Source: Planctomycetota bacterium (GTDB taxonomy: Bacteria > Planctomycetota > J058). Taken from it: 36,485 nt of DNA. The first letter of the stretch is position 1; each line of letters opens with the position of its first letter. The position numbers and the translations under genes were made by a program. The DNA is taken from assembly GCA_024711205.1 (NCBI GenBank), contig JANJTH010000354.1, positions 1-36,485 of the forward strand, read 5' to 3'. Shown here piece after piece: positions 7,296-30,639 of this stretch. A model generated the notes under the pieces. It ran no database searches. It was not told the DNA's origin and was given only the letters and a program-made list of their open reading frames with translations.

Positions 7296-7445
7296 CGGCC
7301 CTCCCGGCCCGCCCCCCCGCGCGGGGGAGAGGGTCGGGGATCTTCTCCGCGGGACCCGGGCAGGGGAAGCCGGACCTTCGCGGCGCGGCCCGGCCCGCGC
7401 GGAGACGGCTGGGGCGGCCGCGCCGGCGGGCTATCATGCGGGGGC

Positions 7446-9674: not shown

Positions 9675-10555
9675 GCGCCCCCCGGCCCGGCGGCCCGGCC
9701 GCGCCCCGCGTGCCCGCGGACGACCCGCGGCTCGACGGCGTGCGCGCGCTCCTCGCCGTCATGGACCGCCTGCGCGACCCCGGCGGCTGCCCGTGGGACC
9801 GCGCGCAGGACGCGGCCACGCTCCGCCCCTTCCTCGTCGAGGAGACGTTCGAGCTGCTCGAGGCGCTCGACCTGGGCTCCGACCCGGCCGTGGCGGAGGA
9901 GCTCGGGGACGTGCTGTTCCAGGTCGTGTTCCACGCGCGCCTGGGCCAGGAGCGCGGGGCCTGGGACCTGGGCCGGGTCGCGCAGGGGATCGCCGACAAG
10001 CTCGTCCGCCGGCACCCCCACGTGTTCGCGCCCGCCGCGGAGCCGTCTTCGGGCGCCGGCCCGAGCGCGCCCCCGCTCACGCCCGGGGAGGTCCTCACAG
10101 CCTGGGACGAGCACAAGCGCCGGGAGGGGCGGCGCTCGGCGCTCGACGGCGTGCCCCGCGCGCTGCCCGCGCTCCTCCGCGCCCAGCGGGTGCAGGAGAA
10201 GGCCGCCCGGGCCGGGTTCGACTGGCCCGACCCGCGCGGACCGCTCGACAAGCTCGCGGAGGAGCTCGCCGAGGTCCGCGAGGCCCTCGCGCGCGGCGAC
10301 CGGGCCCAGGTCGCGGCCGAGCTCGGCGACCTCGCGTTCGCCCTCGTCAACCTCGCGCGGCACCTCGAGGTCCCGGCCGAGGACGCGCTCCGCGGGGCGG
10401 TGGCCCGCTTCGAGGGGCGCTACCGGCGCATGGAGGGGCTGGCGGCCAGCGCGGGCAAGGTCTTGCGCGACATGGACCTCGCGGGCCAGGACCGCCTGTG
10501 GGACGAGGCGAAGCGCCTCGAGCGCGCGGAGCAGGCCGCGACCGGCCCGAGTTGA
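9671..10555 (+). CDS. mazG: MazG-family nucleoside triphosphate pyrophosphohydrolase
   Basis: LLAVMDRLRDPGGCPWDRAQDAATLRPFLVEETFELLEAL...VAEELGDVLFQVVFHARL...KLVRRHPHVF...; GTG start at 9671 overlaps the upstream stop (GTGA). Confidence 0.9.
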   Translation: MSAPRPGGPAAPRVPADDPRLDGVRALLAVMDRLRDPGGCPWDRAQDAATLRPFLVEETFELLEALDLGSDPAVAEELGDVLFQVVFHARLGQERGAWDLGRVAQGIADKLVRRHPHVFAPAAEPSSGAGPSAPPLTPGEVLTAWDEHKRREGRRSALDGVPRALPALLRAQRVQEKAARAGFDWPDPRGPLDKLAEELAEVREALARGDRAQVAAELGDLAFALVNLARHLEVPAEDALRGAVARFEGRYRRMEGLAASAGKVLRDMDLAGQDRLWDEAKRLERAEQAATGPS

Positions 10556-10862: not shown

Positions 10863-11010
10863 CCTGGGCCGGCCTCGCGAGCGGCCCGCCCCCCCGGCAA
10901 CGCCCGCTGACGGCCCTCCGCTCGGCGGCCACCCGCTCCGTCACCCCCGCTCAGCCGGGGGCGGTGCCGCTCCGCACAGGGGTGACTCGCCTCCGTGCGG
11001 TCCTTCCGAA
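10863..11010 (+). repeat. Dispersed repeat family, copy A
   Basis: cctgggcc..ctcgcgagcggcccg..caacgcccgctgacgg..ccgctcggcg..tcaccccc.gctcagccggggg..gctCCGCACaggggtgactcgcctccGTGCGGtccttc; diverged homologue of 14958-15120. Confidence 0.75.
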
Positions 11011-11113
11011 GCGAGCGCAGGCACGCTGCGCCTGCCGCTACCCTGCCCAGGGCGCCGCGGCCCGCCAACACCTCGGTCCGGCCGTCCAGACGAGGCCGCT
11101 CGACGGGCAACGC

Positions 11114-13735: not shown

Positions 13736-13952
13736 GGTCGGCCGGGGGCCTCGAACACCCCACAACCCGGCACCACCCGCCTCGGCGCCGCGACCCTCGA
13801 GCAGTGGACGCGGCACCGAGGCCGGCGGCGCGTACACCGACGGGCGCGAGAACGCGCTGAACAGGAGCGCAGGGGCGCGCCTGGAGGGCATAGCAAGGAT
13901 CGGGCCGGCTGGGGCCTTGGCACTGCTCTGGGTCGGGTCTCCCCCCACGCGA

Positions 13953-14004
13953 CTGTGGGTCGCTCCTGGGCCCGTCTCGCGAGCGGCCCGCACACCGTCA
14001 ACGG
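13953..14004 (+). repeat. Dispersed repeat family, copy C (5' part)
   Basis: ctgtgggtcgctcctgggcccgtctcgcgagcggcccgcacaccgtcaacg is almost identical (one mismatch) to the segment starting at 14958. Confidence 0.9.
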
Positions 14005-14070
14005 CTTCCTGAACGACTGCACGCACCTGATCCTCGATCGCGACCCGCTCTACACCCAGCGCGTGCGTCG
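14003..14070 (+). pseudogene. Integrase/transposase (rve-type) fragment
   Basis: Translates GFLNDCTHLILDRDPLYTQRVR, resembling the (F)LI.DRDPLFT segment of integrase cores; no further integrase motifs downstream. Confidence 0.4.
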
Positions 14071-14212
14071 GCGGCGGCGGAGACGGCCCCCCGCGCGCGC
14101 CGCCCTGACCTGGGCCCCGGCCCCGCTACGACGCTCGTCGTCGATGCGCTGGCCGACCACCGCCGACCGCGCAGCCCGGGACCCGCGAGGGGCCCGGGCT
14201 CGCGGCGCGTAC

Positions 14213-14319
14213 GGGCGCGTGCGCGGAGGGGTCTGCGGAGGGGGTCAGGAGGGAGGCGGAGAGGCCCGCCGGGGGCCCTGGGCAGGGGGGCTGGGGCACA
14301 AACCTGGGACGGGTGATGA
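14213..14319 (+). repeat. Dispersed repeat, distal block E1
   Basis: ctgcggagggggtcaggagggaggcggagaggcccgccgggggccctgggcaggggggctggggcacaaacctgggacgggtgatga, 1 mismatch to 15139-15225; weaker homology extends 20 nt upstream. Confidence 0.95.
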
Positions 14320-14743
14320 CCCGATCTTCCTCAAGACCGAGAAGCGGATCGCGGCCCTCGGGCTCGTCTACCTGCTCGCGTTGATGGTCTACGCATTGAT
14401 CCAGCGCCACGCGCGGCGGGCCCTCGCCGACGCCAACGAGGTCGTCCCGGGCAACCGCGGAGTGACCGCAAAGCCGACGACCGCCGTGCTCTTCAAGCTC
14501 GTCCACGGGATCGACGTCCTCAGGCCGACGCCGGGCACGGCTCACGCGGTGGTGACCAGGATCACGGAGCCACAGCTCGACGCCCTGCGGCTGCTTCGCC
14601 ACCCACTGCTCGAGGATCCATGCGTGCGGATCTCGGCACCCCACGCGCCTCGCCGGGCGCGCGACAAGACCTATGCCAACTGGCGCCAAAAGCAGCGCGC
14701 TCAGGCCGGAGAAAATGGCGCGTCGTCATCCGCGATCCCTTGA
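14315..14743 (+). pseudogene. C-terminal remnant of IS1634-like (IS4 superfamily) DDE transposase
   Basis: DDPIFLKTEKRIAALGLVYLLALMVYALIQRHARRALADA...KPTTAVLFKLVHGI resembles the C-terminus of IS1634-type transposases; N-terminal catalytic portion absent. Confidence 0.6.
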
Positions 14744-14957
14744 ATGTGGGCCGCCGCGCTCCGCGCCACACCGCTCGGCACCCTCGCACGACGCGACCCC
14801 GCGTCGCGCCGCTGCTTGCCCGTGCCGGCGCCCGAGCACCCGCTGGCGCCCGCGCAGGGCGCCTCGCGCGGTCGCCGCGCCCAGGCCGCGGCGACGTGGC
14901 GCCGAGACGCGACACCGAACACGCCCGAACTGCCGGCCCACATGCAGACCAAAGCTC

Positions 14958-15225
14958 CTGTGGGTCGCTCCTGGGCCCGTCTCGCGAGCGGACCGCACAC
15001 CGTCAACGCGCGCTGACGGTCCCCCGCTCGGCGACTGCCTGCTCTGTCACCCCGGCTCAGCCGGGGGCGGCGGCGCTCCAGATGGGGGTGGCTCGCCTAC
15101 GTCTGGTCCTTCAGAAGTGGGCGCATGCGCGAAGGGGCCTGCGGAGGGGGTCAGGAGGGGGGCGGAGAGGCCCGCCGGGGGCCCTGGGCAGGGGGGCTGG
15201 GGCACAAACCTGGGACGGGTGATGA
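14958..15225 (+). repeat. Dispersed repeat family, most complete copy B (MITE/REP-like, ~268 bp)
   Basis: Contains the 5' block shared with 13953-14004, the central hairpins shared with 10863-11010 and 15265-15322, and the distal block shared with 14213-14319. Confidence 0.85.
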
Positions 15226-15238
15226 TGACAGGCCAACA

Positions 15239-15910
15239 TCACGGCGGCGGAGTTTCCGGACAGCACGGGGGCGGCGTCGCTCCAGATGGGGGTGGCTCGC
15301 CTACGTCCGGTCCTTCAGAAGTGTGACACAGGGTTAGCGAGACCGCAAGGGTACAAGGGACAAGACTCCATGCTGCCATCTGAACAAGAACTCCGGGCGG
15401 TGGAGCGATCCCGATCGCCGAGTGGTCATAGACGTGCTGAACAACAACGTCTGGCCGACTTGCCACAAATGCGAAGATCGCCGTCATGGCCGCCCCCGAA
15501 GCAGCGCACCCGGCAGCAAGAGACGCAGGCCACGGCTTACGTGCCAAGTAGTTACTGATAAGGATCGACATGGCCAAAGATGCCCAGATGCCGAAGACTG
15601 GTGGCACCTCAAGGGCCATAGCGATATCTTCAATGACGAGGTGGGGACGCCCGAACGGCGCCGCACAGACCAGCACCACAAACGCTGGCCACACAAATGC
15701 AAAGACTACGTGAGCGGCCCACGGCGGAGATCGCTCGACCAGGGCGGACAAAGGAAGCGGCGCTAGCCCTAAAGCAAAGCACGCCAGCAACATGCGGGAT
15801 GACTGAAGCCACGCCAGGACAGTGAAATGACCAACCACCAACTGCACAACGGTACCCGCAACGGCAACCGCCACGGCTGACGCGAGAGCGTTAAGCACCC
15901 TCCGGCGCAT
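15239..15910 (-). CDS. Small multi-TM membrane protein, candidate immunity protein for the RHS tip; 3' end contributed by repeat copy D
   Basis: MRRRVLNALASAVAVAVAGTVVQLVVGHFTVLAWLQSSRMLLACFALGLAPLPLSALVERSPPWAAHVVFAFVWPAFVVLVCAAPFG...; ATG at 15910, 2 nt after the RHS stop codon; several hydrophobic helices. Confidence 0.7.
   Translation of the reverse strand: MRRRVLNALASAVAVAVAGTVVQLVVGHFTVLAWLQSSRMLLACFALGLAPLPLSALVERSPPWAAHVVFAFVWPAFVVLVCAAPFGRPHLVIEDIAMALEVPPVFGIWASLAMSILISNYLARKPWPASLAAGCAASGAAMTAIFAFVASRPDVVVQHVYDHSAIGIAPPPGVLVQMAAWSLVPCTLAVSLTLCHTSEGPDVGEPPPSGATPPPCCPETPPP
15265..15322 (+). repeat. Dispersed repeat family, partial copy D
   Basis: ggcggcgtcgctccagatgggggtggctcgcctacgtccggtccttcagaagtg versus copy B ggcggcgctccagatgggggtggctcgcctacgtctggtccttcagaagtg. 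Confidence 0.9.
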
Positions 15911-15912
15911 CG

Positions 15913-16728
15913 CTAGCGCGATCCAGGAGTCGTGCGGAAGGGGTTGATTCCTTCCGCGGGAATGAAAAACGGGTTCGCGGACGGCTTGAGCCAGCGATAC
16001 TTCATCTTGAGCTTGTAGAAGCCACCCCCATTCCAAGGGACAAACCAGCCATCGTCCTTGACCATGAACTCGATTCGCTTGCCTTCGTCGTGTTCAGTCA
16101 TCTTCGCCGAAACGAAGCCGGAGGAGCTGGGCTGTCCCAACACACTGTACGTAAAGAAGTGCGCAAACTCATGGACAATGAGACCTGCGGCGTCCTTGTA
16201 GTCCTCGGCGTCCGTTTCCAAGAGGTCATGATTGAAATCCGGTCCGTCCAGGACAAGAGATCGGTCGGGTGCATCGCTGTCGTAGCCCAGGGCGACGCCC
16301 CGGAAGTTCGTCTGACTAGATCCCCAAGAACGAGTGGCCGATATGTAGATGTTGACGCGGTTCTTTGAGAGGAAGTCTGTTGCGCTAGTGGTGCCCAAAG
16401 CTAGGCCCTTGCCGTGGGCTTCGGCGAGGATCACGTTGTTGAGGTAGTTGGAGACCTCTGGATTGGTCTCTATCTGAAGCTCGGCATAGCGGACTGCTTG
16501 CGCGACGTCGATCGTGTAGTCGGCTTGTGACATGCCATGAAGAAAGTGAATGCAGAATCCCGTGCCTCGAAAGGCTTTCCGCATACTCCGGATTGCTTCC
16601 AGAGCATCGAAAACCACCCAATTGGGTCGCTGGCTGGCCAACGAGGCCTGCCAGATAGCATTGAGGTTCGTCTCGAAGGGCGCGAGGCTCTCGTCTGCAA
16701 TCTGCGCCGCTCTGGCTGGGGAGACTTC
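15913..16728 (-). other. Variable C-terminal tip of the RHS protein with HEFAH zincin motif (putative metallopeptidase toxin domain)
   Basis: Region after ...GVDPWGL; contains DAAGLIVHEFAHFFTYSVLG (HEFAH codons at 16159-16173). Lower GC than the RHS body (hand count: 30/60 at 16141-16200 vs 43/60 at 17101-17160). Confidence 0.6.
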
Positions 16729-19700
16729 CAACCCCCAAGGATCCACCCCGTTGATCGGGTCGTTCCCGAACGCGCTGTACGCGTTCCCCAACTGCCCCGG
16801 GTCCCCCCAGATCCCGAGCGGGTCGCGACTCACCCACCGCCCGGCGCCCGCGTCCAGGTACCGCAGCCGGAAGAACCCCCACCCCGTTTCGCAGTCCCAG
16901 CGCCGCCCCTGGAAGCGCCACGGGTTGCCTGTCCCCCCGCCGCCCCCGACCGCGTCCCCGTCCGCGTCGGTGACCCGGACCTCCCCGTAGATCGACCGGT
17001 AGTCGTACCGCTCGACGACCCGCCCGCTCGCGTCGGTCAGCGCGACGACCGACCACACCGAGTTCGCCGCGGCGTAGTAGGTCTGCCCGCTCTTGCGCCA
17101 CTGCACGAGCTGGTCGACGTACAGCCCGCCCCACACCATGTCGGCGACCACGGCCCCGCTGGCCGCGTCGACCTCCTCCACCTCCTGCGCCCCGTCCCAG
17201 ACGTGCAGCACCCGCCGCGCGACCCCGTCGGCCGGGTCCACGTACGTCCGGTCCACGCGCCGCCCGCCTGCGTCGTAGCGGTACCGCCCCACGACCACGC
17301 CGTCGCTCACGCGCTCGACGCGCACGAGCCGGTCGAAGGCGTCCCACTCCAGCCGGTAGTCGCCCTGCCGGATCCGATTCCCGTTCGGGTCGTGCGTGAG
17401 CGCGTCGTCCCCCTGCACCTGCCCCGCGAGGCTCAGGCGCGTGAGCCGCGCCGCCTCGTTCATGAGGTCCGGCTGGTACTTCCCGTTCGCCCGCCGGTTG
17501 GTCGCCAGGACCTCCCCGTCCTGGACCCGCTGGACCCAGTTGCCCACGCCGTCGAACTGCCAGCTCGTCGGCGCGCGCCCCGCGTCCGAGCTGCCGCCCG
17601 TCCCCGCGTAGCTCACCTGCACGACCCGGTAGGCCGAGTCGTAGCCGTAGCTCTGCGTCCGCGCGACCTGCCCGCCGCCCGCCGCCGCGGTCCGGTCCCA
17701 CGTCGCCGTCTCGCTCGCCCTGCGGTTCGCCCGCGTCCACGCGTACCCGAACGACGCCACGTCCTGGCTGCCGGTGCCCGGGCCTTGCACGTTCGCGGGG
17801 CCCAGGTGCGTGAGCGCGGTCAGCCGCTTCGCCGGGTCGTACCCGAACTGCGTGAGCACGCCGTTGCCGGCCTCCGCGAGCAGCGGCCGCCCACCGAGCC
17901 ACTCGTGCCCCTGGATCGGCGCCCCGGTCCCCTGCTCGACGATCCGCAGGAGCCGATCGAGCCCGTCGTGCTCGTAGCCGATCGTCCTCCCCGACGAATA
18001 CGTCACGCTCGTCCGGTTCGAATCCAGATCGAACGTCCGCGCGATCGTCCGGTCGGCCGCCGCCGGCGCCGACAGCACGGCGATCGAGCCGCTCGTGGCC
18101 CCCGTGTAGGCGCCGACGTTCGTGGTCGCCTGCGCCCGCGTGCGCTCGAAGACCTGCCGGCCGAAGGAGTCCCACACGCAGCTCGTGACCACGTCGTCGC
18201 CCGGGTCCCCGGGGTCGTTCTGGTCGATCGCGAGCCGCAGGCGCGACAGCCCGTCGTACTCCCACGCCTGTACGCCCGTCGGCGCGACCTGCTGGCCCGT
18301 GCCCTCGAGCCCGAGCGCGAGCCGGCTCACGTCCTGCCGGCGCAGGCGCCCGATCGCGTCGAACGTCCGCTCGATCACGGTCCCGTTGCGGTCGATCGAC
18401 TGGACCGGCAGCGAGTCGCGCCCGTAGATCGTCCGCGAGGCCGTCCCGTCCGCCCCGAGCACGTACGTCGCCCGGTCCCGCGCGTCGTGGACCCAGCCCG
18501 TCGTGTTGCCGTTGTCGTCCGTCCGGCCCACGAGCCGCGAGTTCTTGTCCCACGCCTGCCGGATCGTGATCAGCCCGTCGGGGTTGGCCGGGTTGCTCGT
18601 GTCGAGCCCCGTGAAGACCCCGCCCAGGTCGAGCTGCCCGTTGCCGAGGCCACCCGCCTTGAGCAGGAGGTCCGTCTGCACCGGCCGCCCGATTCCGTCG
18701 TAGCGGCTGTGGACCACGTTGCCGTGGTCGTTGATCCAGCCGCCCCCGGTCGTCGTGAAGCTCACCGGGTCCGGCACCAGCGGCGCGCCCGACTGCGCGT
18801 CGGAGGCCGCGATCACGAGCCCGCGCGAGTCGTAGACGAGCCGCCCCGTCTGCCCGATCGGGTCCGTCGCCCGCACGAGCCGCCCGAGCGCGTCGTAGAC
18901 CGCGTGCGATCGGTACTCCTCCACCCCCGTGAGCACCGGCGACCGCTCGAACGTCCGCGACGAGACCGGCTGCCCGGCCTGGTTGTAGAGGTACTCCACC
19001 TCGTTGCGGACGTGCCCGGTCCCCGCCCGGCTCCCGAACGCCGGGCCGACGCCGCGCACGAGCCTCCCCGCGCCGTCCCACAGCGCCAGGCTCTCGTCGC
19101 CCTTCGGGTCGACCGCGCGGACGACGCGGCCGAGGCGGTCGAGCTCCGCGAACGACACGGCCTCCTCTTCGCCCACGGGCACCGGCCCGCCGAGCACCGG
19201 GATCGAGCGGTCCCAGGTCGAGCCGCTGAAGCTCCCCCCGTCCACGAACAGCCGGGCCTCCGTCCTGAACGCCCGGCCCACCTCGTCGTAGAACACCTCC
19301 TCCTCGAGCAGCCGCGGCTTGCCCTCGCTCGTCGGCCCCCGCCGCACGAACCGCACCCGCCGCCCCATGGGGTCGTAGACCGCGTCCCCGCAGTTGTCCT
19401 CCGCGTCCGTGACGCACAGCACCTCGTCGAACCCGTCGTAGCGCGTCCGCGTCACGTCGCCGGGGAAGCCCGGCCAGTGCGCCGGGTTGCGCTTCTCCGG
19501 CGACACGACGAGCTCCGGCACCCCGTTGATCGTGTGGTGGTACGTGACCACCGCCTGCTCCGACGACCCCCACCCGTCGATCGCCTGGAGCGGCAGGTCC
19601 CGCTCGTCCCACACGAACGCGACCCGGTTCCCCTCGGGCTTCGTCACCACCGACACGTTGCGGTTCGGGTCGTAGTCGACCCGCGACACGAGCACCCCCG

Positions 19701-22700
19701 GCGACGACACCGTGAGCGTCGCGTCGTCCGCGATCGGCTCGACCTCGGCCAGCGTGAGCACCGGCCCGTCGAGCAGGTCGTAGGCGACCTTCCGCGTCCA
19801 GTACGGGTTGCTCCCGACCGTGGCCGCCGTCCCGTCGCGCTCGCCCGCGTTCTCGAGGCGGACCTCGACCACGCGCCCGTTGCGGTCGTGCACGACGAGC
19901 GCCTCGTAGCCGAGCGCGCCCAGCCCCGCGAGCGCCGGCTCGTGCACGACCGGGCCCACGATCGCCGCCGCCGCCACGGTCGCCACGACCTCGTCGTACG
20001 CGTTGAAGGTCGCCCGGTGCTCGACCCCGCGCGGGTCGACGACCGCGAGCGGGTTGCCCCGCCGGTCGCGCCGGAACCGCGTCCGCACGCCCACGGGCGA
20101 GGCCGCCGACCCCGAGTTGCGCCCGGGGACCACGCCCACGCCCAGCAGGCTCGCGTCGCCCACGACCTCGCGCACGAAGCCCACGGGCCCCGTGGCGCCG
20201 CTCGGGTCGTCGCCCGGGCCCCCGTCGCCGAAGTAGGCGACCTCGTGGACGTTGCCCTCGGGGTCGATCGTCCGCACCGGCTGCCCGAAGCCGTTCCAGA
20301 GGAGCCGGGTCTCGATCGCCTGGGTCGTCCCGCCGTACAGCCCCGCGAGCAGCGTCTGCCCCGCCGCGAGCGTGACCGGCGGCGCCCGTGCGAGCACCGG
20401 GTCGCCCCGCGTCCGGCCGTCGTCGCTCGCGTCGCCGTTCAGGTCGCCGAGCCCCAGGTCCACCCCGGCCTCGAGCAGGAGCGCCGCCACCTCGGGCTCG
20501 GAGACCCCGAGCTCGGTCGCGAGCGCGCCCAGGACCACGCCCGGCGCCCCCTGCTGGTAGTCGAAGAACGTCGTCTGCGTGTAGCGCTCGCGCGTCACGA
20601 GCCCGCCCGTCTGCGGCACGTAGTGGTCGTCGAAGGCCCGCGGGTCGGTGATCGCGCGGACCCCGTTGTAGATCGGCTCGTAGGCGAGCTCCCAGCGCCG
20701 CGGCCGCACGCCCCCTCGCGTGTCGCCGCGCGCGTCGGGCTCGTCCTGCTGCGCGAGCAGGTTGCCGGCTCGCAGCGGGTCGAGCCGGTCGAGCACCCCG
20801 TCGCCCGGCCGGAACGCGTAGCGCGGGTCGTCCTCGGGCTGCGTGTCCTCCGGGTCGTCGTAGTCCCCGTCGCCGTTCGCGTCGATCCCCGCCGTGAGCG
20901 CCCCGTCGCCGTTCAGGTCCTCGTCGCCCCAGACCCAGCGCGAGCGCCGGCCCGACGGGTCCACGCGCACGAGCAGCCGGCCCTGCCGGTCGTAGACCAG
21001 GGTCCGCTCGAAGTAGTCCGGGTCCTGCCCGTAGCCCGTGCCCCGCGGGCGCAGGTTGCGGTTGGCCCAGGCCCGCACCCGCACGCACTGCTGCTGCGCG
21101 TTGTGGAAGTACTCCGACAGGTTGCCGTTGCGGTCGAGGACCGTCGTCTTCCAGGCCGGGTGGTTGAGCGACGCGCCGGCCGGGACCGCGAGCCGCTCGT
21201 AGGCGAAGTGGATCGTGCCTCCGGCCTCCTGCGGCGTCGCCTGCCCCGTCCAGGCCGGAAGCTGGCTCGTCCCGCCCCAGCGCTGCTCGGTCACCCGCGC
21301 GAACGAGATCAGGTCAGGGTCCGTGCCGTAGCGGTTGCGCGTGCGCGCGAGCGGCTCGAGGAGTGCCTCGTCCTCGAGCGCGAAGGGCGACAGCGCCGCG
21401 AGCCCCGCCGCCTCGACCGGGGCGACCACGTGCGTGAGCAGGTGGTTCAGCCGCTCGTCCGCGAACCCCCGCGTGTAGCCGTAGACCTCGCTCCGGCCGC
21501 CCGCCTGGACCTGCTCGGGGAGCGGGAGCGGGTCGCCCTCGGTCGTGAGCGTGTTGTCGGGGCCTGTGACCCGCACGAGGTCGCCGAACAGGCCGTACTC
21601 GTAGGTGACCCGCCGGCCCATGAAGTCCTGGAGCGCCACGAGTCGCCCGAACGGGTCGTAGCTGAAGTCCACGGCTCGCCCGAGCGCGTCGATCGCGCGC
21701 ACGAGCCGTGAGGTGCTCAGGAGGGCGTACTCGAAGCGGAGCGCCTGCCCGTGGCGGTCGACGATCCGGTCGAGGGCCCCGGGGGCGGAGGGCGCGTCGA
21801 GCGGCCGGAACACGACCCGGGTCCCGTCGGGGTTGCGGATCGTGACCTCGCCCGTGTCGGGGCCCGTGGGGTTGCCGGCGGCGTCGGTCTCGGAGAAGGA
21901 CAGGCGGACGAAGTACTCGTCGGGCGCCCGGTAGGTCCCGTCGGGCTGGCGCCGGAACGTGTCGGTGCGGGCCGAGCCCGTGACCCAGGCCAGGTCGCCC
22001 GAGGGCTCGCGCACGAGCCGCTGGTCGTAGCCGTGGTTCCAGCGCTGCCCGAGCGGGCCCGTGTAGAGCACGAAGCTCTTGTAGGTCCGCGAGAGCACGA
22101 ACGACGGCCCGCGCGGCGCGGGGACCACGAGGTCGACGCGGGACTCGACCTTGCCGCCGTTGCTCAGGAGGACGGGGTTCGTGAGGAACCAGACGTGGAA
22201 GCTCAGGCTCGCGATCACCTGCGGGCCGTCGGGGGGGCAGGGCTTCGTCGAGGCCCTCGTGTCCGCGCCGAAGCTCGCGTCGTTCACCGCCTCCTGGGGG
22301 AACACGGCCACGACCGTCCCGTCGCGGACCTCGAACCCGTCGGGCAGGAAGACCTCCGAGGCCCCGAGCAAGACCGACTCGGGCTCGCCGCTCGAATCGG
22401 CGAAGATCCCGAAGCCGCAGATCAGGACCTGGAACGGGACGTTCTGGAACACCTGCACGTCGAGCGGCACGTTGCCGTTCGCGTCCGTCTCGAGGACGGC
22501 CCGCGGCCCCTGTCCGTTGACGGACGCGAAGGGTTGCGTCTCGTCGATCGGCGCCAGCGGCACGACCTTGACGACCACGAGCATTCCGTCGACGACCACG
22601 AGGGAGTAGCTCCCCGGCCCGCCGGCGGGGTCCGCCTCCGGGCGCGCGTGGCGGATGCCGGCCGACGCCTCGAGCCGGAGGTCCTGCGTGAGCTCGACCC

Positions 22701-25700
22701 CGCTCACGACCACCGCGTCCGGAGCGTCCGCGAGGGCGTCCCACCGATCGAGGATCTGGCCGATCGAGTCGGTCACGGTCACCTGCGTCCGCTCGCCCGC
22801 GACCTCGAAGTCGCCGACTTCGACCGCGACCTGGCCGTTCGCGTCGGCGACCGTCGTGACCACGACCTCCCCGGGACCGAGCTCGATCTCGTCGGCCGAA
22901 GCGCCCGTGACCCGCGCCTTGGGCGGGCGAGTGACCCCGCCCGAGGGGCCCGCCGCGGCCTGGGTCGACAGGTGGACCCGGACCGTCTCGCCGGGGCTCG
23001 CCTGGGCGGTCCGAGATCGCCTGCTCCAGGGGGCGGTCCCGTCCGGCGCGGCGCTCTTGCCGCAGGTCGTCTGCAACGTCGGCGTCGTCGGCGGGTCGCC
23101 AGGTCCCGGGGTCGGCGGCGCGGGCAGGGCCGGGCGCTCGCGGCGGACCGTGATCCCGATCGCCCCGCTCGGGGCCGAAATGCCCCCGTCCGGCCCCTCG
23201 GCCGTCACGTGCAAGGTCGACGGCCCGTCCGCCGGCAGGACGATCGCCGTGCTCCAGGCCCCGCTCGAGTCGATCGAGGCGACCCCGTTCGTCCGGTGCC
23301 CGTTGATCCACACGCGCGCGACGTGGTCCGCGGGCCCCGTGCCCGAGACGAGCAGCGTCGTCTGGGTCAGGACCGCCGCGATCGTCGTCCCGTCGAGCGG
23401 CGAGACGATCGCCGGCGCCGCGGGCGCGGTCGCTCCCAGCGGCGGGCGGGTCGTGAAGACGATCCCGGTCGTCTGCGCGAGCGGGTTGCCGGCCAGGTCG
23501 CGGAGGTGCGGGTGGATCGCCACGCCGCAGGCGACGCCCGACGGCAGCGCGGTCGTGGGCTGCACGACCACCGTCCGCCCGTCCGGCGCGAGGGACACGG
23601 TCGCCGCTGTCGCGCCGCCCGGGGCGAGCGTCACCGACACGGTCGCGCCCGTGACCGACGCGGGGTCGAGGGCCTCGTCGAAGGTCAGGAAGATCTGTCC
23701 GACCGAGGACGGCTCGACGAGCCCCGCCCCGTCGCTCGGGAAGCTCGAGACGAGCCGGGGCCCCGCCAGGTCCGGTCCCGCGGCCACACGGTAGGCCGCC
23801 AGGAACGGGCTCGTCCCCGGGGCGTCCGGCGCCTGGTCGAAGGCGAGCGGCGAGTCGGCCGCGGAGAGCTCGGACAGGACCCGCAGCTCGAGCTCGGCCC
23901 CTGACGGCAGCGGGCTCGTCGGCGTGACCACGAGCGTCCGGTCCACGAGCACGTAGGTCACCGGCAGGACGACCTCGCTCGCCGGGCCGGCCTGGCGGTC
24001 GACGAGGAGGACCGAGGCCGCGAGCGCGCCCGGGTCCGCCGTGGGCGCCCGCGTGAACGTGAGCTCGAAGCGCGCGTCGGCCGGGACCTCGAGCGCGCCC
24101 GGCGCGGGCGCGACCGCCTCGACCTGGAACGAGCGCAGGATCGTCGCCGAGACGACCCCGCCCCGCTCGGGGCGCGAGGTCCCGCCCAGCACGGGCGCGA
24201 GCCGGAGCTGGACGTCGGCCAGCGCCACGTCACGCACGTCGTGCCCGGCGTCCCACAGGATCACGTGCCGCTGCCCGAGTGGCGTGCCCGGTCGAGCGTT
24301 CAGGGCCCCGGCCGCGACCGTGAGCGGCGCCCAGGTCTGGCCGCCGTCGCGCGAGAGCTCCGCCACGACGTCGACCGGCAGGACGTCCGCCACGACCTCG
24401 AAGTAGACGGGCACGTACCGGCGGCTGATCACGGGTGGGACCTGGAGCACCGACACGACCGGGTCGTCCTCGACCTCGGTCGTCTGCCAGAAGCCCGCGA
24501 CCAGGGCGCGTCCGCTCCCGTTGGCGCTCCCGCTGGCGCCGGAGCCGGGGCTCGTGCCCGCCGGCGGCCCGAACGCCGTCGCCTCGCCGAGCGACCAACC
24601 GAGGGCTCCGCCGCCGGCGACGGCCTCCCCGCTCGCCCCCGCGATCGGGGCGAGCGTGGCCTGGAGCCGGCGGCGCGTGATCCGGAGCGTCCCGAAGTCG
24701 GTCGCCACGTCCTCCGGGAAGAGCGGCAGGAGCGGGCCCGAGCGGAACTGCTCGCCGTCGACGACGACCTCGAGGACGATCGGGCTGCCCGCCTCGAGCG
24801 TGAGCTGGGCCGAGCGATACAGCCCGGCGCCAGCGTGCGGCATGGGCTCCTGCCGGCCGCCGGTGCTCTCGGTGAAGACAGCGCTCACGCTCGCGCTCGC
24901 GATCGGGCTCCCGTCGCCGCGCAGCACCTCGACCTGGAGCGTCGTGGTCACGGGCCGCGTCAGGTCGTCGAGCGACGCCAGCTCGGAGCCCTTGACCCGC
25001 GCCGGCGCGCTCGGGTTGCCGAGCAGGTCGAGCGCGATCACCCGAAGCGCCGTCTGCTCGCCCGTGGGCGTGGGCACCGTCAGTTCGAGGGACGGCGCCC
25101 CGCCCGGGAGCCGCCCAACCTCGACCCACGTCTCGCCGTCCTCCGTGCGCTCGACGACGTACTCGGCCAGGCCGACGCCCGCGTCGGTCGAGCCGGTCCA
25201 GCGGAGCGTCGTCGTCGGCGCGAAGGGGTGCGGGCCCGCGACCGGGATCCCCGGCCGCGTCGGCCCCGTCGCGTCGAGCGCGAAGGTCGTCGTCGCCCGG
25301 GACGTCGTCCCGGGCGGCACCGGCTGCCCCGGCACGACCCCGTTGCCGAGTGCGTCGGCGATCGAGACCGTGACCTCGTGCGGCCCGTCCGCGAGCGGGA
25401 GCGCGGGCGTCCAGGAGACCCCCGTCGAAGAGACGAGCGCCTCGGCCGTGCGGTCGACGCCGTCGACGAACAGGCGCGCCGTCGCCAGGTCCAGGCCCAC
25501 GCCGGGGCTCGTCCCGCCCGCCGGCCCCACGGGCGGGTCGCTCCAATCGAAGCGGATCGTCGGCCTGGCGTCGGCGGACGTCGTGCCCGAGGGCGGCGCC
25601 TGCGCCAGGGCGACGACCGGCGCCGTGCGGTCCACGAAGATCGATCGCTCGGCCGTGGCCTGCGTGCCCGCCCCGTCGGCGATCCGGAGCTCGAGCTTCC

Positions 25701-28700
25701 ACGCGCCCTCGCCGAGCGCCTGCGCGAGCGACATGCCCGCGGCCGTGACCGTCGCGTCGGCGGTCACGTCCGCGACGGCGCCCGTCGGGTCGGTCCGGAG
25801 CACGCGCACGGTGCCCAGATTCACGCCCGAACCGCTGTCCGAGAACGTCGCCACGAAGGCGACCGACGCGACCGCGGTCGTCGGCCCGGCGGGGTCGGAG
25901 GCGAGCCCCTCGATCACGGGGGCGAAGTGGTCCTGGGTGAAGACCACCGTCGCGCTGGAGGCGTGGTTCGCGGGGTCGACCGCGGCGTACGGGTCGGCCG
26001 CCTCGACGACGAGCGTGTGCGGCTGGTCGTGCAGCACGCGCGCGACCTGCGCCTCGAACGTGTAGTGCCGCCGGCCCGAGATCGTGCCCTGGGAGGTGAG
26101 CTGGACGGGGAGGATCGCGCCGTCGAGCCGTACGACCACGCTCGACACGTCCGTCAGGTCCGAGATCGCGGCGGCGACGAGGAACGGCCCCGGCCCGAGC
26201 GTCTGCCCGGGCGTCGGCTGCGTGACGACGACCGCCGGCGGGCTCGTGTCGACGTCGACCTGGCCGCTCGACGTCGTGCCCACGTTCCCGGCGGCGTCGC
26301 GGACGACGAGGTCGTAGACGTAGCGGTCGTCGGGGGGCGACGGGTCGGTGACGAAGAACGACGTCGGTCCTGGGCCGGACAGCGGTTGGTTCGTGACCGT
26401 GTGCGTGGCCCCTGTGCTCGCGTCTCGGCGGACCACAGAGAGCTCCGTCAAGCCCGCAGCCGGCACGAACTGCGGCATGGCGCCCTCCGCGACCGCGACC
26501 TGGAGGGTCACGGAGCCGCCGGGCGCGGTGACGAGGCTCGTCTGCGAGAGCACGCTGACCGACGGCGGGCTCACGTCGAATAGGTACTCGGACGAGAGCT
26601 GGGAGTCCGCCTGCCGCCCCGCCAGGTCGACCGCGCGCACGAAGTAGCGGATCGAGTCGTTGCGCATGGGGCTCGGCGAGGTGAACTGCGCCACGGAGCC
26701 CGCTTGCTGCGCGACGAGCACCTGCGGCGAGCCCGCGGACCGCGGGATTTCCCAGAGCTCCAGGCGCGCGATCCCGACGTCGTCGGTCGCCGAGGCGAAG
26801 ATCGTCGTGGGCGTGTTGCGGACGAACGGGCCGCCGTCGGAGGTCGCCGTGACGGTGGGGGCGGCGAAGTCGTAGGTGACGGTCAAGTCGTTCGTGATGT
26901 ACGCGATCAGCCCGGCTGGGCGAGGACGAAGAGCGAAGCGGATCCTCTGCGTGCTCGGCGAAGTCGGGAGCGAGACCGAGACGGTCGAGCGGTAGCCGTT
27001 GGCCGCGTGCAGGTCGAACCGGTCGCCGTAGAACTGCCGGCTCGCGAACCGCAGATTGACGGGGTCCCAGAGCTCGCTCTGGAGCTGGAACGGGCCCGGA
27101 GTCGTCGGGTTCGTGAGCGAGACGACCACGTCGAACTCCCCCGGGACCGTGACCGACGGGCCGACCAGGGTCGCCGCGAGCTGGCCTGCGAAGTGCCCGT
27201 AGACCGACTGCTGCGTCGGGGCGCCGCCGGCGTAGAGGAGCGAGAGCGCGTACGGTCCGCCGCTCGCCAGGGCGCCCGAGGGCACCTGGAAGTGGAAGGG
27301 CGAGCCAGGGACCTGGGCCAGGGGGATCCCGTTCAGGGTCGCGCCGAGGGGCTGGACGCCACCCGCGAGCGGGACGAAGAACACGTCGGAGCCGATCGTC
27401 GGGTCGGTCCACGTCAGGAGCTGGGTCCCCAGGCCCACGGGCGTGGGGCCGTGGGTCGCGGGCGCCGACCCGGAGAGGATCACGACCGCGTCGTCGATCA
27501 GCACGGCGTAGTCGAGCCGCGCAGGTCGGCTCGTGTCGCCGGTCACGGCCAGGACGCCGTCCAGGCGCAGCACGCCGCCCGCGACCTGGGTCGAGAGCGC
27601 GCCGAGCGTCTCGGCGCCGCCCACGGCGAAGGCTCGCGCGATCGGGACCTCGGGCAGGACAAGGTCGGTCGTGAAGGGCACGGCCCAGCCCAGGGTCACC
27701 GCCGCGCCGACCGTCGGGAGCCCCGGGACCTGGCCCTCGGCCCAGCCCCCACCGGAGGCGACCGGCAGCGGGGTCGCGGTCCAGGCGCCCGTGGCCGGGT
27801 CGAGCTGGAGCCAGGGCACGACGGCTCCGGTGGGCAGCCCCGTCGCGTTCGGGACGCGGACCTCGACCGTGCCGTCGACGACGACGCCTTCGGGCTGAAG
27901 GCTCAGGACCGTCTCGGCGTGGTAGCGGCGCTCGGGGTCCGAGGGGCGCGGGAACGGGCTCGGGAGCTGGGCCATGCCCATGCGGTGGAGCGAGAGCGGC
28001 GCCCCCTCCCAGCCCGAAGGGAACGTCAGGCGCGCGCCGGCGCGGATCCGCACCTCGAGGCCCGGGACGTCGGGCCGCGCGAGCACCAGGTCCGCGGCGA
28101 GCGTCCCGTCCGGCGCGAAGTCGGGCGCGGCCTCGAGGGCCGGGTCGCGGTAGGGGACGAAGAAGATCCGGTCGGCGGCCTGGGAGTCGACGGCGGCGGT
28201 CGAGACCAGCGTGTGCGCCCTGCCGGCGCCGACGAGCTGGCCGTCTGCCACGATCGACACGGTCGTGCCGAGCCGGACGCCTTCGAGCACGAAGCGCCCC
28301 TGGTCGTCGGTGACGGCCTCGACGTCGGGGCCTGCCAGCACCCGCGCGCCGCCGAGGGGGATCGCGACCGTGGAGTCGTAGAACCCCGCGACGTACCCCG
28401 TCACGGTCCCCGTGAGCTGGACCTCGAAGGCGTACGCCACCACCGTCTCGTTGCCCGCGTGGTCGGCGACGCGGGCCGTGAGCGTGTGCGGGCCGTGCTC
28501 CAGGTCGTCGAGCGTGGCGGCGGCCTCGGCCGGGCCGACGGCCAGCAGGCCGGTCCGGTCGACCCCGTCGACCGCGAGCCGCACGGAGTCCGGGGCGATC
28601 CCGCAGGTCGCGTCGGCGTAGGCGAGGCGAAAGACGACGGTCGACGAGAGCAGGACCGCGGCCTCGGCCGGCTCGAGCGCCAGCGTAGGCGGCACGGAGT

Positions 28701-30639
28701 CGTACGTGAAGGCGACCGACGCCGCGCCGACGTTGCCCGCGAGGTCGGTGATCCGGGCCTCGAGGGTGTTCGGGCCCTGGGTCAGGTGCGCCGCGACCGC
28801 ACCGAGCGCGCCGGTGCCCCGGCCCGCGCCCCCCGGCGGGGCGCCAGGCGTGCCCGCGGGCGCGTCGGTCACGGCGATCGCGCTCGTCACGTCCGCGCCG
28901 TTCGCCGTCACGACGAGCGAGTCGGCGCGGACGCCCGTGAGGTCGTCGGCCCACGCGACGACGACCGGGGCTCCGTCGCCCACGCAGGCGCCGGACGCCG
29001 GCGCCTCGAAGGCGACCGTGGGGGCGACGACGTCGCGCGCGTAGACGAGCAGGCGCGGCGCCGGGCCGTCGAGGCCACCGCCAGCCTCCCGCGCGTGGAA
29101 GGCGACGGACCCGGGGCCGTGCTCGCGCGTGGCCTTGAGCAGCCAGCCCGCGTCCGGCGCGCCGCCGAGCGTGGCGGCCACGTCCGACGTCAGGTCGAGA
29201 GTCACCGTGCCGCGGCGCCCCCGCTCGAGCGCGACCGCGTCGGTCGGGCTCGCGAGGAACGGGAAGGGCGGCCGGGTCATGCTCCAGGTTGGGCCGCGCC
29301 AACCGCGCCAGCCCGGCCGCCGGCAGCCCGGGTCGTCGGGGCTGCGCCAGGTCGCCCCCAGCTCGTCCCAGGGCGTCGACATGCGGTGGGCCGAGAGCTC
29401 GAACGTCTTCTTCCAGCCCGGGGGCGCGCGGACCTCGCCCGCGATCGTGAGCTCGAGCACAGCGCGCTCGAGCTCGCCCGTGCCGAGCGCCTGCTCGACC
29501 TCGGCCGGGTCGACGCGGAGCAGGGCGCGCTTTCGGGCGAACGCGGCCACGCGGAGGACAGGCTCGTCGCCGTGGTTCGTCGTGGGCCGGGCCTGCGAGA
29601 TCCAGGTGTCGGCGACGATCGCCACGGGGATGGGCGGGGGGAGCGCCACGAGCTCGAAGTCCACGAGGCCGAGCGCGCCCATGGACGCGGCGCGGACCCG
29701 CACGACGCCGAAGGCGGGTGGCGGCCCGAGCGCGACGGTCGCGCGGGCCAGGCCGTCCCGGTCGGTCGTGACCCGGACGCTCGCGGGCGCCAGGGCGCCC
29801 GGCCCTGCCGTGACCTCGAAGTCGATCGGGACGCCCGCGACGCCGCGGCCAGCGCCGTCCCGGACGGCCACGACGAGCGGGGCCGGCGCGGTCTCGCCGG
29901 AGCGGCCGACCTGTCCACCCCCGGAGACCCCGGCGAGGGTCAGCGGGCCTGCGGCCACGAGGTCGAGGACGAGACGCGGCGGCCGGGCCCCTTCGCGCGC
30001 GCCGAGCTCGAGCCAGCCGCTGGCCTGTGCGCGCACGCGCCGCAGGAGCCAACCCTGGGGCGCGTCGGTGCCGGCGAGCGCCGCGAGCACGTCGGCCGTC
30101 ACGTCGAGCCGGAGTTCGCCCTCCTCCCGCGAGACGCGGCCGGTGGCGCTCGTCGGCGTGGCGTAGGCCCGCGCGGCGCCGGGACCGGCGCCCGCCTTGG
30201 CATCACGGCTCAGGTCCCAGCGCCGGCCCGGACCCGGCCCCGGCTGGTCGGGGCTCCACCAGGTCGCGCCTGCCTCGGTCCAGGCCGACGTGAGGCGGAG
30301 CGCCTCGATCTCGCGCTCGTCCTCGCGACAGCGGTCCCAGGACCGATCACGGTCCTCGACGGTCAGGACGAGGTGCGCCGATCGGACGACCTGGGATCCG
30401 GCGGCCGCGCGCAGGGCGGTCAGGTCGAAGCGGACGAGCGCCTGCCCGTCACCGGGACCACCGAGCCGGAGCCGCCGCTCGGCGCCATGGTTCGCGTGCG
30501 GAGGAGCTGCCGAGACCCAGGTGTCGGCGCTCGCCACGAGGGCCGGGCCCGCTCCGTCCGCGTCCGCACGGGCTGCAACGAGGCCGAGGCCCAAGGCGAG
30601 CATGCTCGCGCGGATCTTGCGCCTGCGTTCGGCCTGCAT
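15913..30639 (-). CDS. Giant secreted RHS/YD-repeat polymorphic-toxin-like protein (4908 aa): signal peptide, DNRLRE/CBM96-like and Ig/FN3-like repeats, DUF6531-like start, YD repeats, RHS core junction, variable C-terminal tip
   Basis: N-terminus MQAERRRKIRASMLALGLGLVAARADADG; ADTWVS..NHG (two DNRLRE-like domains); Big/FN3-like segments; DLVVPAPRGPSFVLSRTYKSFVLYTGPLGQRWNHGYDQRL; many YD repeats; RHS core FRLRYLDAGAGRWVSRDPLGIWGDPGQLGNAYSAFGNDPINGVDPWGL. Confidence 0.92.
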   Translation of the reverse strand: MQAERRRKIRASMLALGLGLVAARADADGAGPALVASADTWVSAAPPHANHGAERRLRLGGPGDGQALVRFDLTALRAAAGSQVVRSAHLVLTVEDRDRSWDRCREDEREIEALRLTSAWTEAGATWWSPDQPGPGPGRRWDLSRDAKAGAGPGAARAYATPTSATGRVSREEGELRLDVTADVLAALAGTDAPQGWLLRRVRAQASGWLELGAREGARPPRLVLDLVAAGPLTLAGVSGGGQVGRSGETAPAPLVVAVRDGAGRGVAGVPIDFEVTAGPGALAPASVRVTTDRDGLARATVALGPPPAFGVVRVRAASMGALGLVDFELVALPPPIPVAIVADTWISQARPTTNHGDEPVLRVAAFARKRALLRVDPAEVEQALGTGELERAVLELTIAGEVRAPPGWKKTFELSAHRMSTPWDELGATWRSPDDPGCRRPGWRGWRGPTWSMTRPPFPFLASPTDAVALERGRRGTVTLDLTSDVAATLGGAPDAGWLLKATREHGPGSVAFHAREAGGGLDGPAPRLLVYARDVVAPTVAFEAPASGACVGDGAPVVVAWADDLTGVRADSLVVTANGADVTSAIAVTDAPAGTPGAPPGGAGRGTGALGAVAAHLTQGPNTLEARITDLAGNVGAASVAFTYDSVPPTLALEPAEAAVLLSSTVVFRLAYADATCGIAPDSVRLAVDGVDRTGLLAVGPAEAAATLDDLEHGPHTLTARVADHAGNETVVAYAFEVQLTGTVTGYVAGFYDSTVAIPLGGARVLAGPDVEAVTDDQGRFVLEGVRLGTTVSIVADGQLVGAGRAHTLVSTAAVDSQAADRIFFVPYRDPALEAAPDFAPDGTLAADLVLARPDVPGLEVRIRAGARLTFPSGWEGAPLSLHRMGMAQLPSPFPRPSDPERRYHAETVLSLQPEGVVVDGTVEVRVPNATGLPTGAVVPWLQLDPATGAWTATPLPVASGGGWAEGQVPGLPTVGAAVTLGWAVPFTTDLVLPEVPIARAFAVGGAETLGALSTQVAGGVLRLDGVLAVTGDTSRPARLDYAVLIDDAVVILSGSAPATHGPTPVGLGTQLLTWTDPTIGSDVFFVPLAGGVQPLGATLNGIPLAQVPGSPFHFQVPSGALASGGPYALSLLYAGGAPTQQSVYGHFAGQLAATLVGPSVTVPGEFDVVVSLTNPTTPGPFQLQSELWDPVNLRFASRQFYGDRFDLHAANGYRSTVSVSLPTSPSTQRIRFALRPRPAGLIAYITNDLTVTYDFAAPTVTATSDGGPFVRNTPTTIFASATDDVGIARLELWEIPRSAGSPQVLVAQQAGSVAQFTSPSPMRNDSIRYFVRAVDLAGRQADSQLSSEYLFDVSPPSVSVLSQTSLVTAPGGSVTLQVAVAEGAMPQFVPAAGLTELSVVRRDASTGATHTVTNQPLSGPGPTSFFVTDPSPPDDRYVYDLVVRDAAGNVGTTSSGQVDVDTSPPAVVVTQPTPGQTLGPGPFLVAAAISDLTDVSSVVVRLDGAILPVQLTSQGTISGRRHYTFEAQVARVLHDQPHTLVVEAADPYAAVDPANHASSATVVFTQDHFAPVIEGLASDPAGPTTAVASVAFVATFSDSGSGVNLGTVRVLRTDPTGAVADVTADATVTAAGMSLAQALGEGAWKLELRIADGAGTQATAERSIFVDRTAPVVALAQAPPSGTTSADARPTIRFDWSDPPVGPAGGTSPGVGLDLATARLFVDGVDRTAEALVSSTGVSWTPALPLADGPHEVTVSIADALGNGVVPGQPVPPGTTSRATTTFALDATGPTRPGIPVAGPHPFAPTTTLRWTGSTDAGVGLAEYVVERTEDGETWVEVGRLPGGAPSLELTVPTPTGEQTALRVIALDLLGNPSAPARVKGSELASLDDLTRPVTTTLQVEVLRGDGSPIASASVSAVFTESTGGRQEPMPHAGAGLYRSAQLTLEAGSPIVLEVVVDGEQFRSGPLLPLFPEDVATDFGTLRITRRRLQATLAPIAGASGEAVAGGGALGWSLGEATAFGPPAGTSPGSGASGSANGSGRALVAGFWQTTEVEDDPVVSVLQVPPVISRRYVPVYFEVVADVLPVDVVAELSRDGGQTWAPLTVAAGALNARPGTPLGQRHVILWDAGHDVRDVALADVQLRLAPVLGGTSRPERGGVVSATILRSFQVEAVAPAPGALEVPADARFELTFTRAPTADPGALAASVLLVDRQAGPASEVVLPVTYVLVDRTLVVTPTSPLPSGAELELRVLSELSAADSPLAFDQAPDAPGTSPFLAAYRVAAGPDLAGPRLVSSFPSDGAGLVEPSSVGQIFLTFDEALDPASVTGATVSVTLAPGGATAATVSLAPDGRTVVVQPTTALPSGVACGVAIHPHLRDLAGNPLAQTTGIVFTTRPPLGATAPAAPAIVSPLDGTTIAAVLTQTTLLVSGTGPADHVARVWINGHRTNGVASIDSSGAWSTAIVLPADGPSTLHVTAEGPDGGISAPSGAIGITVRRERPALPAPPTPGPGDPPTTPTLQTTCGKSAAPDGTAPWSRRSRTAQASPGETVRVHLSTQAAAGPSGGVTRPPKARVTGASADEIELGPGEVVVTTVADANGQVAVEVGDFEVAGERTQVTVTDSIGQILDRWDALADAPDAVVVSGVELTQDLRLEASAGIRHARPEADPAGGPGSYSLVVVDGMLVVVKVVPLAPIDETQPFASVNGQGPRAVLETDANGNVPLDVQVFQNVPFQVLICGFGIFADSSGEPESVLLGASEVFLPDGFEVRDGTVVAVFPQEAVNDASFGADTRASTKPCPPDGPQVIASLSFHVWFLTNPVLLSNGGKVESRVDLVVPAPRGPSFVLSRTYKSFVLYTGPLGQRWNHGYDQRLVREPSGDLAWVTGSARTDTFRRQPDGTYRAPDEYFVRLSFSETDAAGNPTGPDTGEVTIRNPDGTRVVFRPLDAPSAPGALDRIVDRHGQALRFEYALLSTSRLVRAIDALGRAVDFSYDPFGRLVALQDFMGRRVTYEYGLFGDLVRVTGPDNTLTTEGDPLPLPEQVQAGGRSEVYGYTRGFADERLNHLLTHVVAPVEAAGLAALSPFALEDEALLEPLARTRNRYGTDPDLISFARVTEQRWGGTSQLPAWTGQATPQEAGGTIHFAYERLAVPAGASLNHPAWKTTVLDRNGNLSEYFHNAQQQCVRVRAWANRNLRPRGTGYGQDPDYFERTLVYDRQGRLLVRVDPSGRRSRWVWGDEDLNGDGALTAGIDANGDGDYDDPEDTQPEDDPRYAFRPGDGVLDRLDPLRAGNLLAQQDEPDARGDTRGGVRPRRWELAYEPIYNGVRAITDPRAFDDHYVPQTGGLVTRERYTQTTFFDYQQGAPGVVLGALATELGVSEPEVAALLLEAGVDLGLGDLNGDASDDGRTRGDPVLARAPPVTLAAGQTLLAGLYGGTTQAIETRLLWNGFGQPVRTIDPEGNVHEVAYFGDGGPGDDPSGATGPVGFVREVVGDASLLGVGVVPGRNSGSAASPVGVRTRFRRDRRGNPLAVVDPRGVEHRATFNAYDEVVATVAAAAIVGPVVHEPALAGLGALGYEALVVHDRNGRVVEVRLENAGERDGTAATVGSNPYWTRKVAYDLLDGPVLTLAEVEPIADDATLTVSSPGVLVSRVDYDPNRNVSVVTKPEGNRVAFVWDERDLPLQAIDGWGSSEQAVVTYHHTINGVPELVVSPEKRNPAHWPGFPGDVTRTRYDGFDEVLCVTDAEDNCGDAVYDPMGRRVRFVRRGPTSEGKPRLLEEEVFYDEVGRAFRTEARLFVDGGSFSGSTWDRSIPVLGGPVPVGEEEAVSFAELDRLGRVVRAVDPKGDESLALWDGAGRLVRGVGPAFGSRAGTGHVRNEVEYLYNQAGQPVSSRTFERSPVLTGVEEYRSHAVYDALGRLVRATDPIGQTGRLVYDSRGLVIAASDAQSGAPLVPDPVSFTTTGGGWINDHGNVVHSRYDGIGRPVQTDLLLKAGGLGNGQLDLGGVFTGLDTSNPANPDGLITIRQAWDKNSRLVGRTDDNGNTTGWVHDARDRATYVLGADGTASRTIYGRDSLPVQSIDRNGTVIERTFDAIGRLRRQDVSRLALGLEGTGQQVAPTGVQAWEYDGLSRLRLAIDQNDPGDPGDDVVTSCVWDSFGRQVFERTRAQATTNVGAYTGATSGSIAVLSAPAAADRTIARTFDLDSNRTSVTYSSGRTIGYEHDGLDRLLRIVEQGTGAPIQGHEWLGGRPLLAEAGNGVLTQFGYDPAKRLTALTHLGPANVQGPGTGSQDVASFGYAWTRANRRASETATWDRTAAAGGGQVARTQSYGYDSAYRVVQVSYAGTGGSSDAGRAPTSWQFDGVGNWVQRVQDGEVLATNRRANGKYQPDLMNEAARLTRLSLAGQVQGDDALTHDPNGNRIRQGDYRLEWDAFDRLVRVERVSDGVVVGRYRYDAGGRRVDRTYVDPADGVARRVLHVWDGAQEVEEVDAASGAVVADMVWGGLYVDQLVQWRKSGQTYYAAANSVWSVVALTDASGRVVERYDYRSIYGEVRVTDADGDAVGGGGGTGNPWRFQGRRWDCETGWGFFRLRYLDAGAGRWVSRDPLGIWGDPGQLGNAYSAFGNDPINGVDPWGLEVSPARAAQIADESLAPFETNLNAIWQASLASQRPNWVVFDALEAIRSMRKAFRGTGFCIHFLHGMSQADYTIDVAQAVRYAELQIETNPEVSNYLNNVILAEAHGKGLALGTTSATDFLSKNRVNIYISATRSWGSSQTNFRGVALGYDSDAPDRSLVLDGPDFNHDLLETDAEDYKDAAGLIVHEFAHFFTYSVLGQPSSSGFVSAKMTEHDEGKRIEFMVKDDGWFVPWNGGGFYKLKMKYRWLKPSANPFFIPAEGINPFRTTPGSR

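What the first reader, a model, noticed from the sequence alone, without database searches (positions are those of the whole stretch)
15913..16728. RHS giant ends in a foreign-looking HExxH metallopeptidase tip
Seen: after the RHS core signature (RYLDAGAGRWVSRDPLG...NDPINGVDPWGL) the protein switches to a ~270-aa domain with DAAGLIVHEFAHFFTYSVLG, a canonical zincin HExxH in a hydrophobic helix. GC falls from ~72% to ~50% in hand-counted 60-nt lines, typical of swapped toxin tips. Established: RHS/YD proteins are polymorphic toxins with variable C-termini, and metallopeptidase tips are known as a class. Inference: this is a protease toxin, possibly a new subfamily, since I recognise no further family motif around the HEFAH.
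Basis: partly seen in the sequence, partly recalled or inferred. Interest (0 to 1): 0.72.

Follow-up and report, generated by a model that had tools for sequence, protein, structure and literature searches.

The report
Orphan zinc-peptidase RHS toxin tip
A giant bacterial RHS protein ends in a foreign-looking domain with a zinc-peptidase motif and is followed at once by a gene for a multi-pass membrane protein, most likely a toxin tip with its own antidote; this is a known kind of weapon, but this tip and its partner have no detectable relatives in what was searched.

Summary
On the minus strand a 4,908-residue RHS protein (15913-30639) switches after DPWGL (window 16729) to a 271-residue tip with LIVHEFAHFF (HEFAH at 16159-16173). 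GC falls from 0.74 to 0.57, GC3 from 0.98 to 0.70; the zinc-protease pattern arises in 0.025% of shuffled tips. Related RHS genes in the phylum (inferred: Planctomycetota) carry unrelated tips after the same core, so this is a swapped polymorphic-toxin tip. No relative of the tip was found in Pfam, NCBIfam, PHROGs, PADLOC, PDB sequences, plasmids, phages, about 1,180 sampled genomes, or peptide-pattern scans of genome and viral contigs. Two single-sequence AlphaFold models failed (pLDDT 35), so fold and third zinc ligand are unproven. New: two bases after the RHS stop (TAGcgATG) starts a 223-aa ORF with six hydrophobic segments, most likely a membrane immunity protein; among 49 tips with a downstream ORF it alone is polytopic. 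Rare repeats and an IS1634 remnant border the module; another array of these repeats stands beside an Imm21 immunity gene. Best reading: an antibacterial metallopeptidase tip acting at or outside the inner membrane, guarded by a membrane immunity protein. New member of a known kind.

The parts
15913..30639 (-). RHS/YD-repeat giant protein, 4908 aa; Ig-like domains, DUF6531, RHS repeats, RHS-associated core
29965..30528 (-). N-terminal DNRLRE domain (residues 38-225), after a signal-peptide-like start (residues 1-28, by eye)
   Evidence: NF033679 E 2.1e-26
16729..16989 (-). RHS-associated core with the DPLG-x23-DPWGL release junction
   Evidence: TIGR03696 E 4e-13, residues 4551-4637
15913..16728 (-). 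swapped C-terminal tip, 271 aa plus stop; zinc-peptidase-like; no known family
16159..16173 (-). HEFAH zinc-peptidase motif (within LIVHEFAHFF)
15239..15910 (-). 223-aa polytopic membrane protein, start 2 nt after the RHS stop; candidate immunity protein; its last ~28 codons run into a repeat
15266..15323 (.). 58-nt repeat, second copy at 15062-15119, diverged copy at 10956-11013
15119..15225 (.). 107-nt repeat, second copy at 14213-14319; also at contigs C420, C592, C719
14949..15008 (.). 60-nt repeat, second copy at 13944-14003
14318..14602 (+). remnant of the C-terminal part of an IS1634-family transposase
   Evidence: NF033559 E 4e-10, profile 399-481/483, below cut-off

Best explanation
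The end of the gene is a horizontally acquired toxin-immunity module on an RHS polymorphic toxin. The exported RHS shell would carry the 271-aa tip; after delivery the tip would be cut off at the DPLG...DPWGL junction and act as a zinc-dependent peptidase (HEFAH: two His ligands and the catalytic Glu; third ligand unknown) on a target at or outside the inner membrane of a competing cell. The adjacent polytopic membrane protein, with a start codon 2 nt after the RHS stop, would be the cognate immunity protein. Shown: RHS architecture, tip switch, GC shift, motif beyond chance, tip variability in relatives, tight gene order, membrane character of the partner. Inferred: metal binding, proteolysis, toxicity, autocleavage, immunity, compartment.
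For: Motif statistics and GC shift; RHS domains; unrelated tips on the same core in relatives; TAGcgATG coupling and six hydrophobic segments, 0 of 5000 shuffles with five or more; relatives' RHS tips are usually followed tightly by a small ORF; L031, the only other tip meeting the full zinc-protease pattern, has a predicted lipoprotein partner; HExxH RHS tips are an established toxin class (PMC3482391); the HExxH effector VgrG2b is toxic in the periplasm and has envelope-located immunity (PMC6899460); Rhs toxins are released by Asp autoproteolysis near the C-terminal core (PMC8636562); a repeat array with the same repeats stands beside an Imm21 gene.
Against: No fold model, no third zinc ligand identified, no homologue in which HEFAH can be seen to be conserved; the DPLG-DPWGL spacing is 23 residues, and I could not test cleavage. 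Most known immunity proteins are cytoplasmic and globular (PMC3482391). The link between zincin tips and envelope partners rests on two cases; a third HExxH tip (L035) has a soluble partner.
Confidence: 0.6

Rival explanations
1. It is a metallopeptidase toxin tip, but it works in the cytoplasm of the target; the neighbouring membrane protein is not its antidote but an unrelated acquired gene, or helps in some other way.
For: Most immunity proteins and most partners in related loci are soluble (PMC3482391); repeats and a transposon remnant show that foreign DNA collects here.
Against: The partner starts 2 nt after the RHS stop, shares the low GC of the tip (0.61) and occupies the usual immunity position.
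Confidence: 0.2
2. The tip is a toxin or effector of another kind, and HEFAH is a structural or decayed helix without a metal.
For: No model, no third ligand, no homologues.
Against: The full zinc-protease pattern appears in only 0.025% of shuffles; it sits in a predicted helix after several strands in one low-confidence model, the usual zincin order.
Confidence: 0.12
3. The RHS giant is a surface or adhesion protein and its end is a non-toxic acquired segment or an eroding remnant.
For: Repeats and an IS1634 remnant lie within 2 kb; the tip is an orphan; giant YD-repeat surface proteins need not be toxins (own knowledge).
Against: The ORF is intact to its end, codon positions behave as coding in tip and partner, and tips vary between relatives in the manner of polymorphic toxins.
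Confidence: 0.08

Closest known systems
RHS polymorphic toxins with Tox-MPTase1-5 tips (Zhang et al. 2012, PMC3482391)
   Same: RHS shell followed by a variable tip with HExxH; reported in planctomycetes for Tox-MPTase1 and 4
   Different: No Pfam or NCBIfam profile matches the tip even at E 1; no immunity partner is listed for Tox-MPTase1-5 in that table, here a membrane partner is adjacent
HopH1/NleD-type metallopeptidases (M91)
   Same: HExxH, also found as RHS tips
   Different: No profile match
VgrG2b/Tpe1 T6SS metallopeptidase effectors with Tpi immunity (PMC6899460)
   Same: HExxH C-terminal domain, small downstream partner located in the envelope
   Different: No sequence match in the PDB search; Tpi bulk is periplasmic, anchored or soluble, here the partner is polytopic; carrier is an exported RHS giant, not VgrG
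PVC-metallopeptidase
   Same: HExxH zincin in polymorphic toxins
   Different: HExxHxxQ-E signature absent: T at the Q position (HEFAHFFT)
Polyimmunity loci (PMC3482391)
   Same: Spare immunity genes away from toxins, e.g. the Imm21 gene on C719
   Different: Here interspersed with repeats, few genes, only one identified immunity family

Membership tests
RHS polymorphic toxin | RHS/YD repeats and RHS-associated core before the tip | tested here: met
   PF05593 E 6e-31, TIGR03696 E 4e-13
RHS polymorphic toxin | Variable C-terminal domain after a conserved junction | tested here: met
   64 other distinct tips on related cores, none alike
RHS polymorphic toxin | Immunity gene directly downstream | tested here: inconclusive
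   223-aa membrane ORF starts 2 nt after the stop; its function is not shown
RHS polymorphic toxin | Asp autoproteolysis at DPxG...DPxGL | tested here: inconclusive
   DPLG-x23-DPWGL present; cleavage not testable here
RHS polymorphic toxin | Toxicity of the tip | not testable with these tools
   needs expression
Zincin metallopeptidase (fold class) | HExxH in a hydrophobic helix | tested here: met
   LIVHEFAHFF meets the full pattern; 0.025% of shuffles
Zincin metallopeptidase (fold class) | Zincin fold and a third metal ligand | tested here: inconclusive
   AlphaFold pLDDT 35.7 and 34.8 without an alignment
Tox-MPTase1-5 and HopH1/NleD (M91) | Match to the family profile | tested here: not met
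   No peptidase family in Pfam or NCBIfam at E 1; that Pfam holds models for these families is own knowledge
PVC-metallopeptidase | HExxHxxQ-E signature | tested here: not met
   HEFAHFFT, T in place of Q
VgrG2b/Tpe metallopeptidase effectors | Sequence relationship to the solved domain | tested here: not met
   PDB sequence search at E up to 10 gave no peptidase; fold comparison was not possible

The most novel reading that the evidence does not exclude
A new zincin toxin family that acts at the inner membrane or periplasm and is neutralised by a six-pass membrane immunity protein, in a genome that keeps spare immunity genes (Imm21 and unknown ones) as repeat-bounded low-GC cassettes at a few sites, with the same repeat family bordering this toxin-immunity module.
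Probability: 0.2. Interest if true: 0.66.

Novelty: new member of a known kind. Interest (0 to 1): 0.42.

Why it matters
Zinc-peptidase toxin tips are known, but their bacterial targets and antidotes are mostly unknown. A tip next to a polytopic membrane antidote candidate points to the envelope as the site of action and gives a clean two-gene test. The repeats that border the module, shared with a locus beside an orphan Imm21 gene, offer a way to ask how toxin tips and antidotes are acquired.

Tried and rejected
Homologue searches for the tip all failed: peptide-pattern scans of genome contigs and viral contigs, 392 genomes of its own phylum, 10 further genomes, 379 genomes of the phylum of a Myxococcota record, 399 of the phylum of an Azoarcus record, plasmids, phages, PDB, PADLOC and PHROGs. 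Two weak matches (E 0.003 and 0.009) are short hits to ORFs that look by eye like phage capsid proteins and do not reach HEFAH. A DNA pattern for [hydrophobic]xHEFAHFF hit 82 stretches of genome contigs; the best resemble the tip only around the motif that selected them, and I saw no RHS tip among them. Two AlphaFold runs on single sequences had no confidence and were not used for a fold search. The idea that the repeats mark other RHS genes was rejected: no RHS match in the fetched stretches of repeat-bearing contigs C420, C592, C719 and C768. The idea that all repeat sites hold immunity genes was rejected: several hold other genes. The RNA fold of the repeat region is not more stable than shuffles.

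Full report
What was checked. The open reading frame runs on the minus strand from 30639 to 15913, 4,908 residues without a stop. It carries bacterial Ig-like domains, DUF6531 and RHS repeats, an N-terminal DNRLRE domain and the RHS-associated core. The core ends DPLG-x23-DPWGL at residue 4637; the last 271 residues (window 16728-15916) are the tip. LIVHEFAHFF starts at tip residue 183, HEFAH is at window 16159-16173. GC is 0.739 in the last 900 core codons and 0.567 in the tip, GC3 0.98 against 0.70. In 20,000 shuffles of the tip, HExxH appeared in 0.98% and the full zinc-protease pattern in 0.025%.

Is it a swapped tip? The last 312 residues of the core were searched in 58 genomes of the same phylum; 30 had matches. 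Tails were read from those loci and from 40 further stretches: 65 distinct tips of at least 20 residues, this one included, after the same kind of core, and none of the others is similar to this one. The second RHS gene of the same genome (contig C289) has a different tip. This is the pattern of RHS polymorphic toxins. The phylum is inferred to be Planctomycetota because the list of genome sizes drawn for the phylum of a Gemmataceae record repeats, nearly in order, the list for the window's own phylum; this is an inference, not a printed label.

Relatives. None was found for the tip in any collection searched, nor for its partner in family libraries, in 58 genomes of its own phylum, in 59 genomes drawn for the Gemmataceae record's phylum (largely the same genomes) or in viral contigs. 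An empty search of sampled genomes does not exclude relatives elsewhere. Two other tips with a convincing HExxH occur in RHS relatives of the same family and order: L035 (AHEISH) and L031 (LLVHEFFHSFH). Neither resembles this tip beyond the motif, and neither has a Pfam peptidase match. L031 meets the full pattern. So zinc-peptidase-like tips recur in this clade, apparently as unrelated sequences.

The partner. The RHS stop and the next start read TAGcgATG. The next ORF, 15910-15239, gives 223 residues with six hydrophobic segments. Shuffles of its first 195 codons gave at most four such segments in 5,000 trials and stayed open in 0.8%; T is enriched at second codon positions (0.38 against 0.20 and 0.27), as in true membrane proteins. 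In related genomes RHS tips are commonly followed within a few nucleotides by a small ORF; of 49 tips with such an ORF, only this one has a polytopic partner. L031's partner is a predicted lipoprotein with a weak Sel1-repeat match. The two tips that meet the full zinc-protease pattern thus both have envelope-located partners, against about one in seven of the rest; with two cases, counted after the fact, this is suggestive only.

The borders. Downstream lie repeats of 58 to 107 nt and the C-terminal remnant of an IS1634 transposase (below the curated cut-off). The last codons of the partner run into one repeat. The core of the 107-nt repeat occurs 17 times in the genome at only four loci (reversed-pattern control 0). 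A 261-nt stretch holding it has no match in nine other genomes of the order (in most only the best 40 candidates were scored). On contig C719 the repeats stand beside an orphan Imm21 immunity gene (E 3e-17, above the curated cut-off), and on C420 two small low-GC ORFs end in the same repeat-encoded tail as the partner. Other sites with weaker repeat matches hold unrelated genes. Repeat-associated gain of immunity genes is thus possible but not shown; clusters of spare immunity genes, sometimes next to recombinases, are described (PMC3482391).

How it probably works. Rhs shells encage the toxin and release it by Asp autoproteolysis (PMC8636562). HExxH RHS tips are an established class (PMC3482391), and one HExxH effector, VgrG2b, is toxic in the periplasm with envelope-located immunity (PMC6899460). 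By analogy the tip here is a zinc peptidase, released at DPWGL, that acts at or outside the inner membrane, with the polytopic protein as antidote. Metal binding, proteolysis, toxicity and immunity are not shown. Two AlphaFold runs were uninformative.

Verdict. A sound observation and a well-formed example of a known kind, with an unclassified tip and an unusual antidote candidate. On the tests made here it cannot be filed under Tox-MPTase1-5, M91, PVC-metallopeptidase or the VgrG2b family; it works, most likely, like them.

Noticed in passing
window 13944-15323; G000 contigs C420, C592, C719: A rare repeat family (17 copies of its core at four loci) stands beside low-GC islands with small orphan ORFs; one, on C719 (L180), is an Imm21 immunity gene with no RHS gene nearby, and two on C420 (L179) end in the same repeat-encoded tail as the partner of this tip.
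   Followed up: partly
L031 (same order), RHS tip and next ORF: Another orphan zinc-peptidase-like RHS tip (LLVHEFFHSFH), followed by a predicted lipoprotein with a weak Sel1-repeat match.
   Followed up: partly
L035 (same family), RHS tip: A third, different HExxH tip (DIFAHEISHMRF) with a soluble downstream ORF.
   Followed up: partly
window 14318-14602 (+): Remnant of the C-terminal end of an IS1634 transposase; it begins where one copy of the 107-nt repeat ends.
   Followed up: partly
window 7436-10555 (+) and 33.7-35.4 kb: Ordinary neighbours: a MazG domain, a short-chain dehydrogenase (minus strand) and a methyltransferase (plus strand); the large ORFs at 1.1-5.6 kb have no Pfam match.
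   Followed up: no
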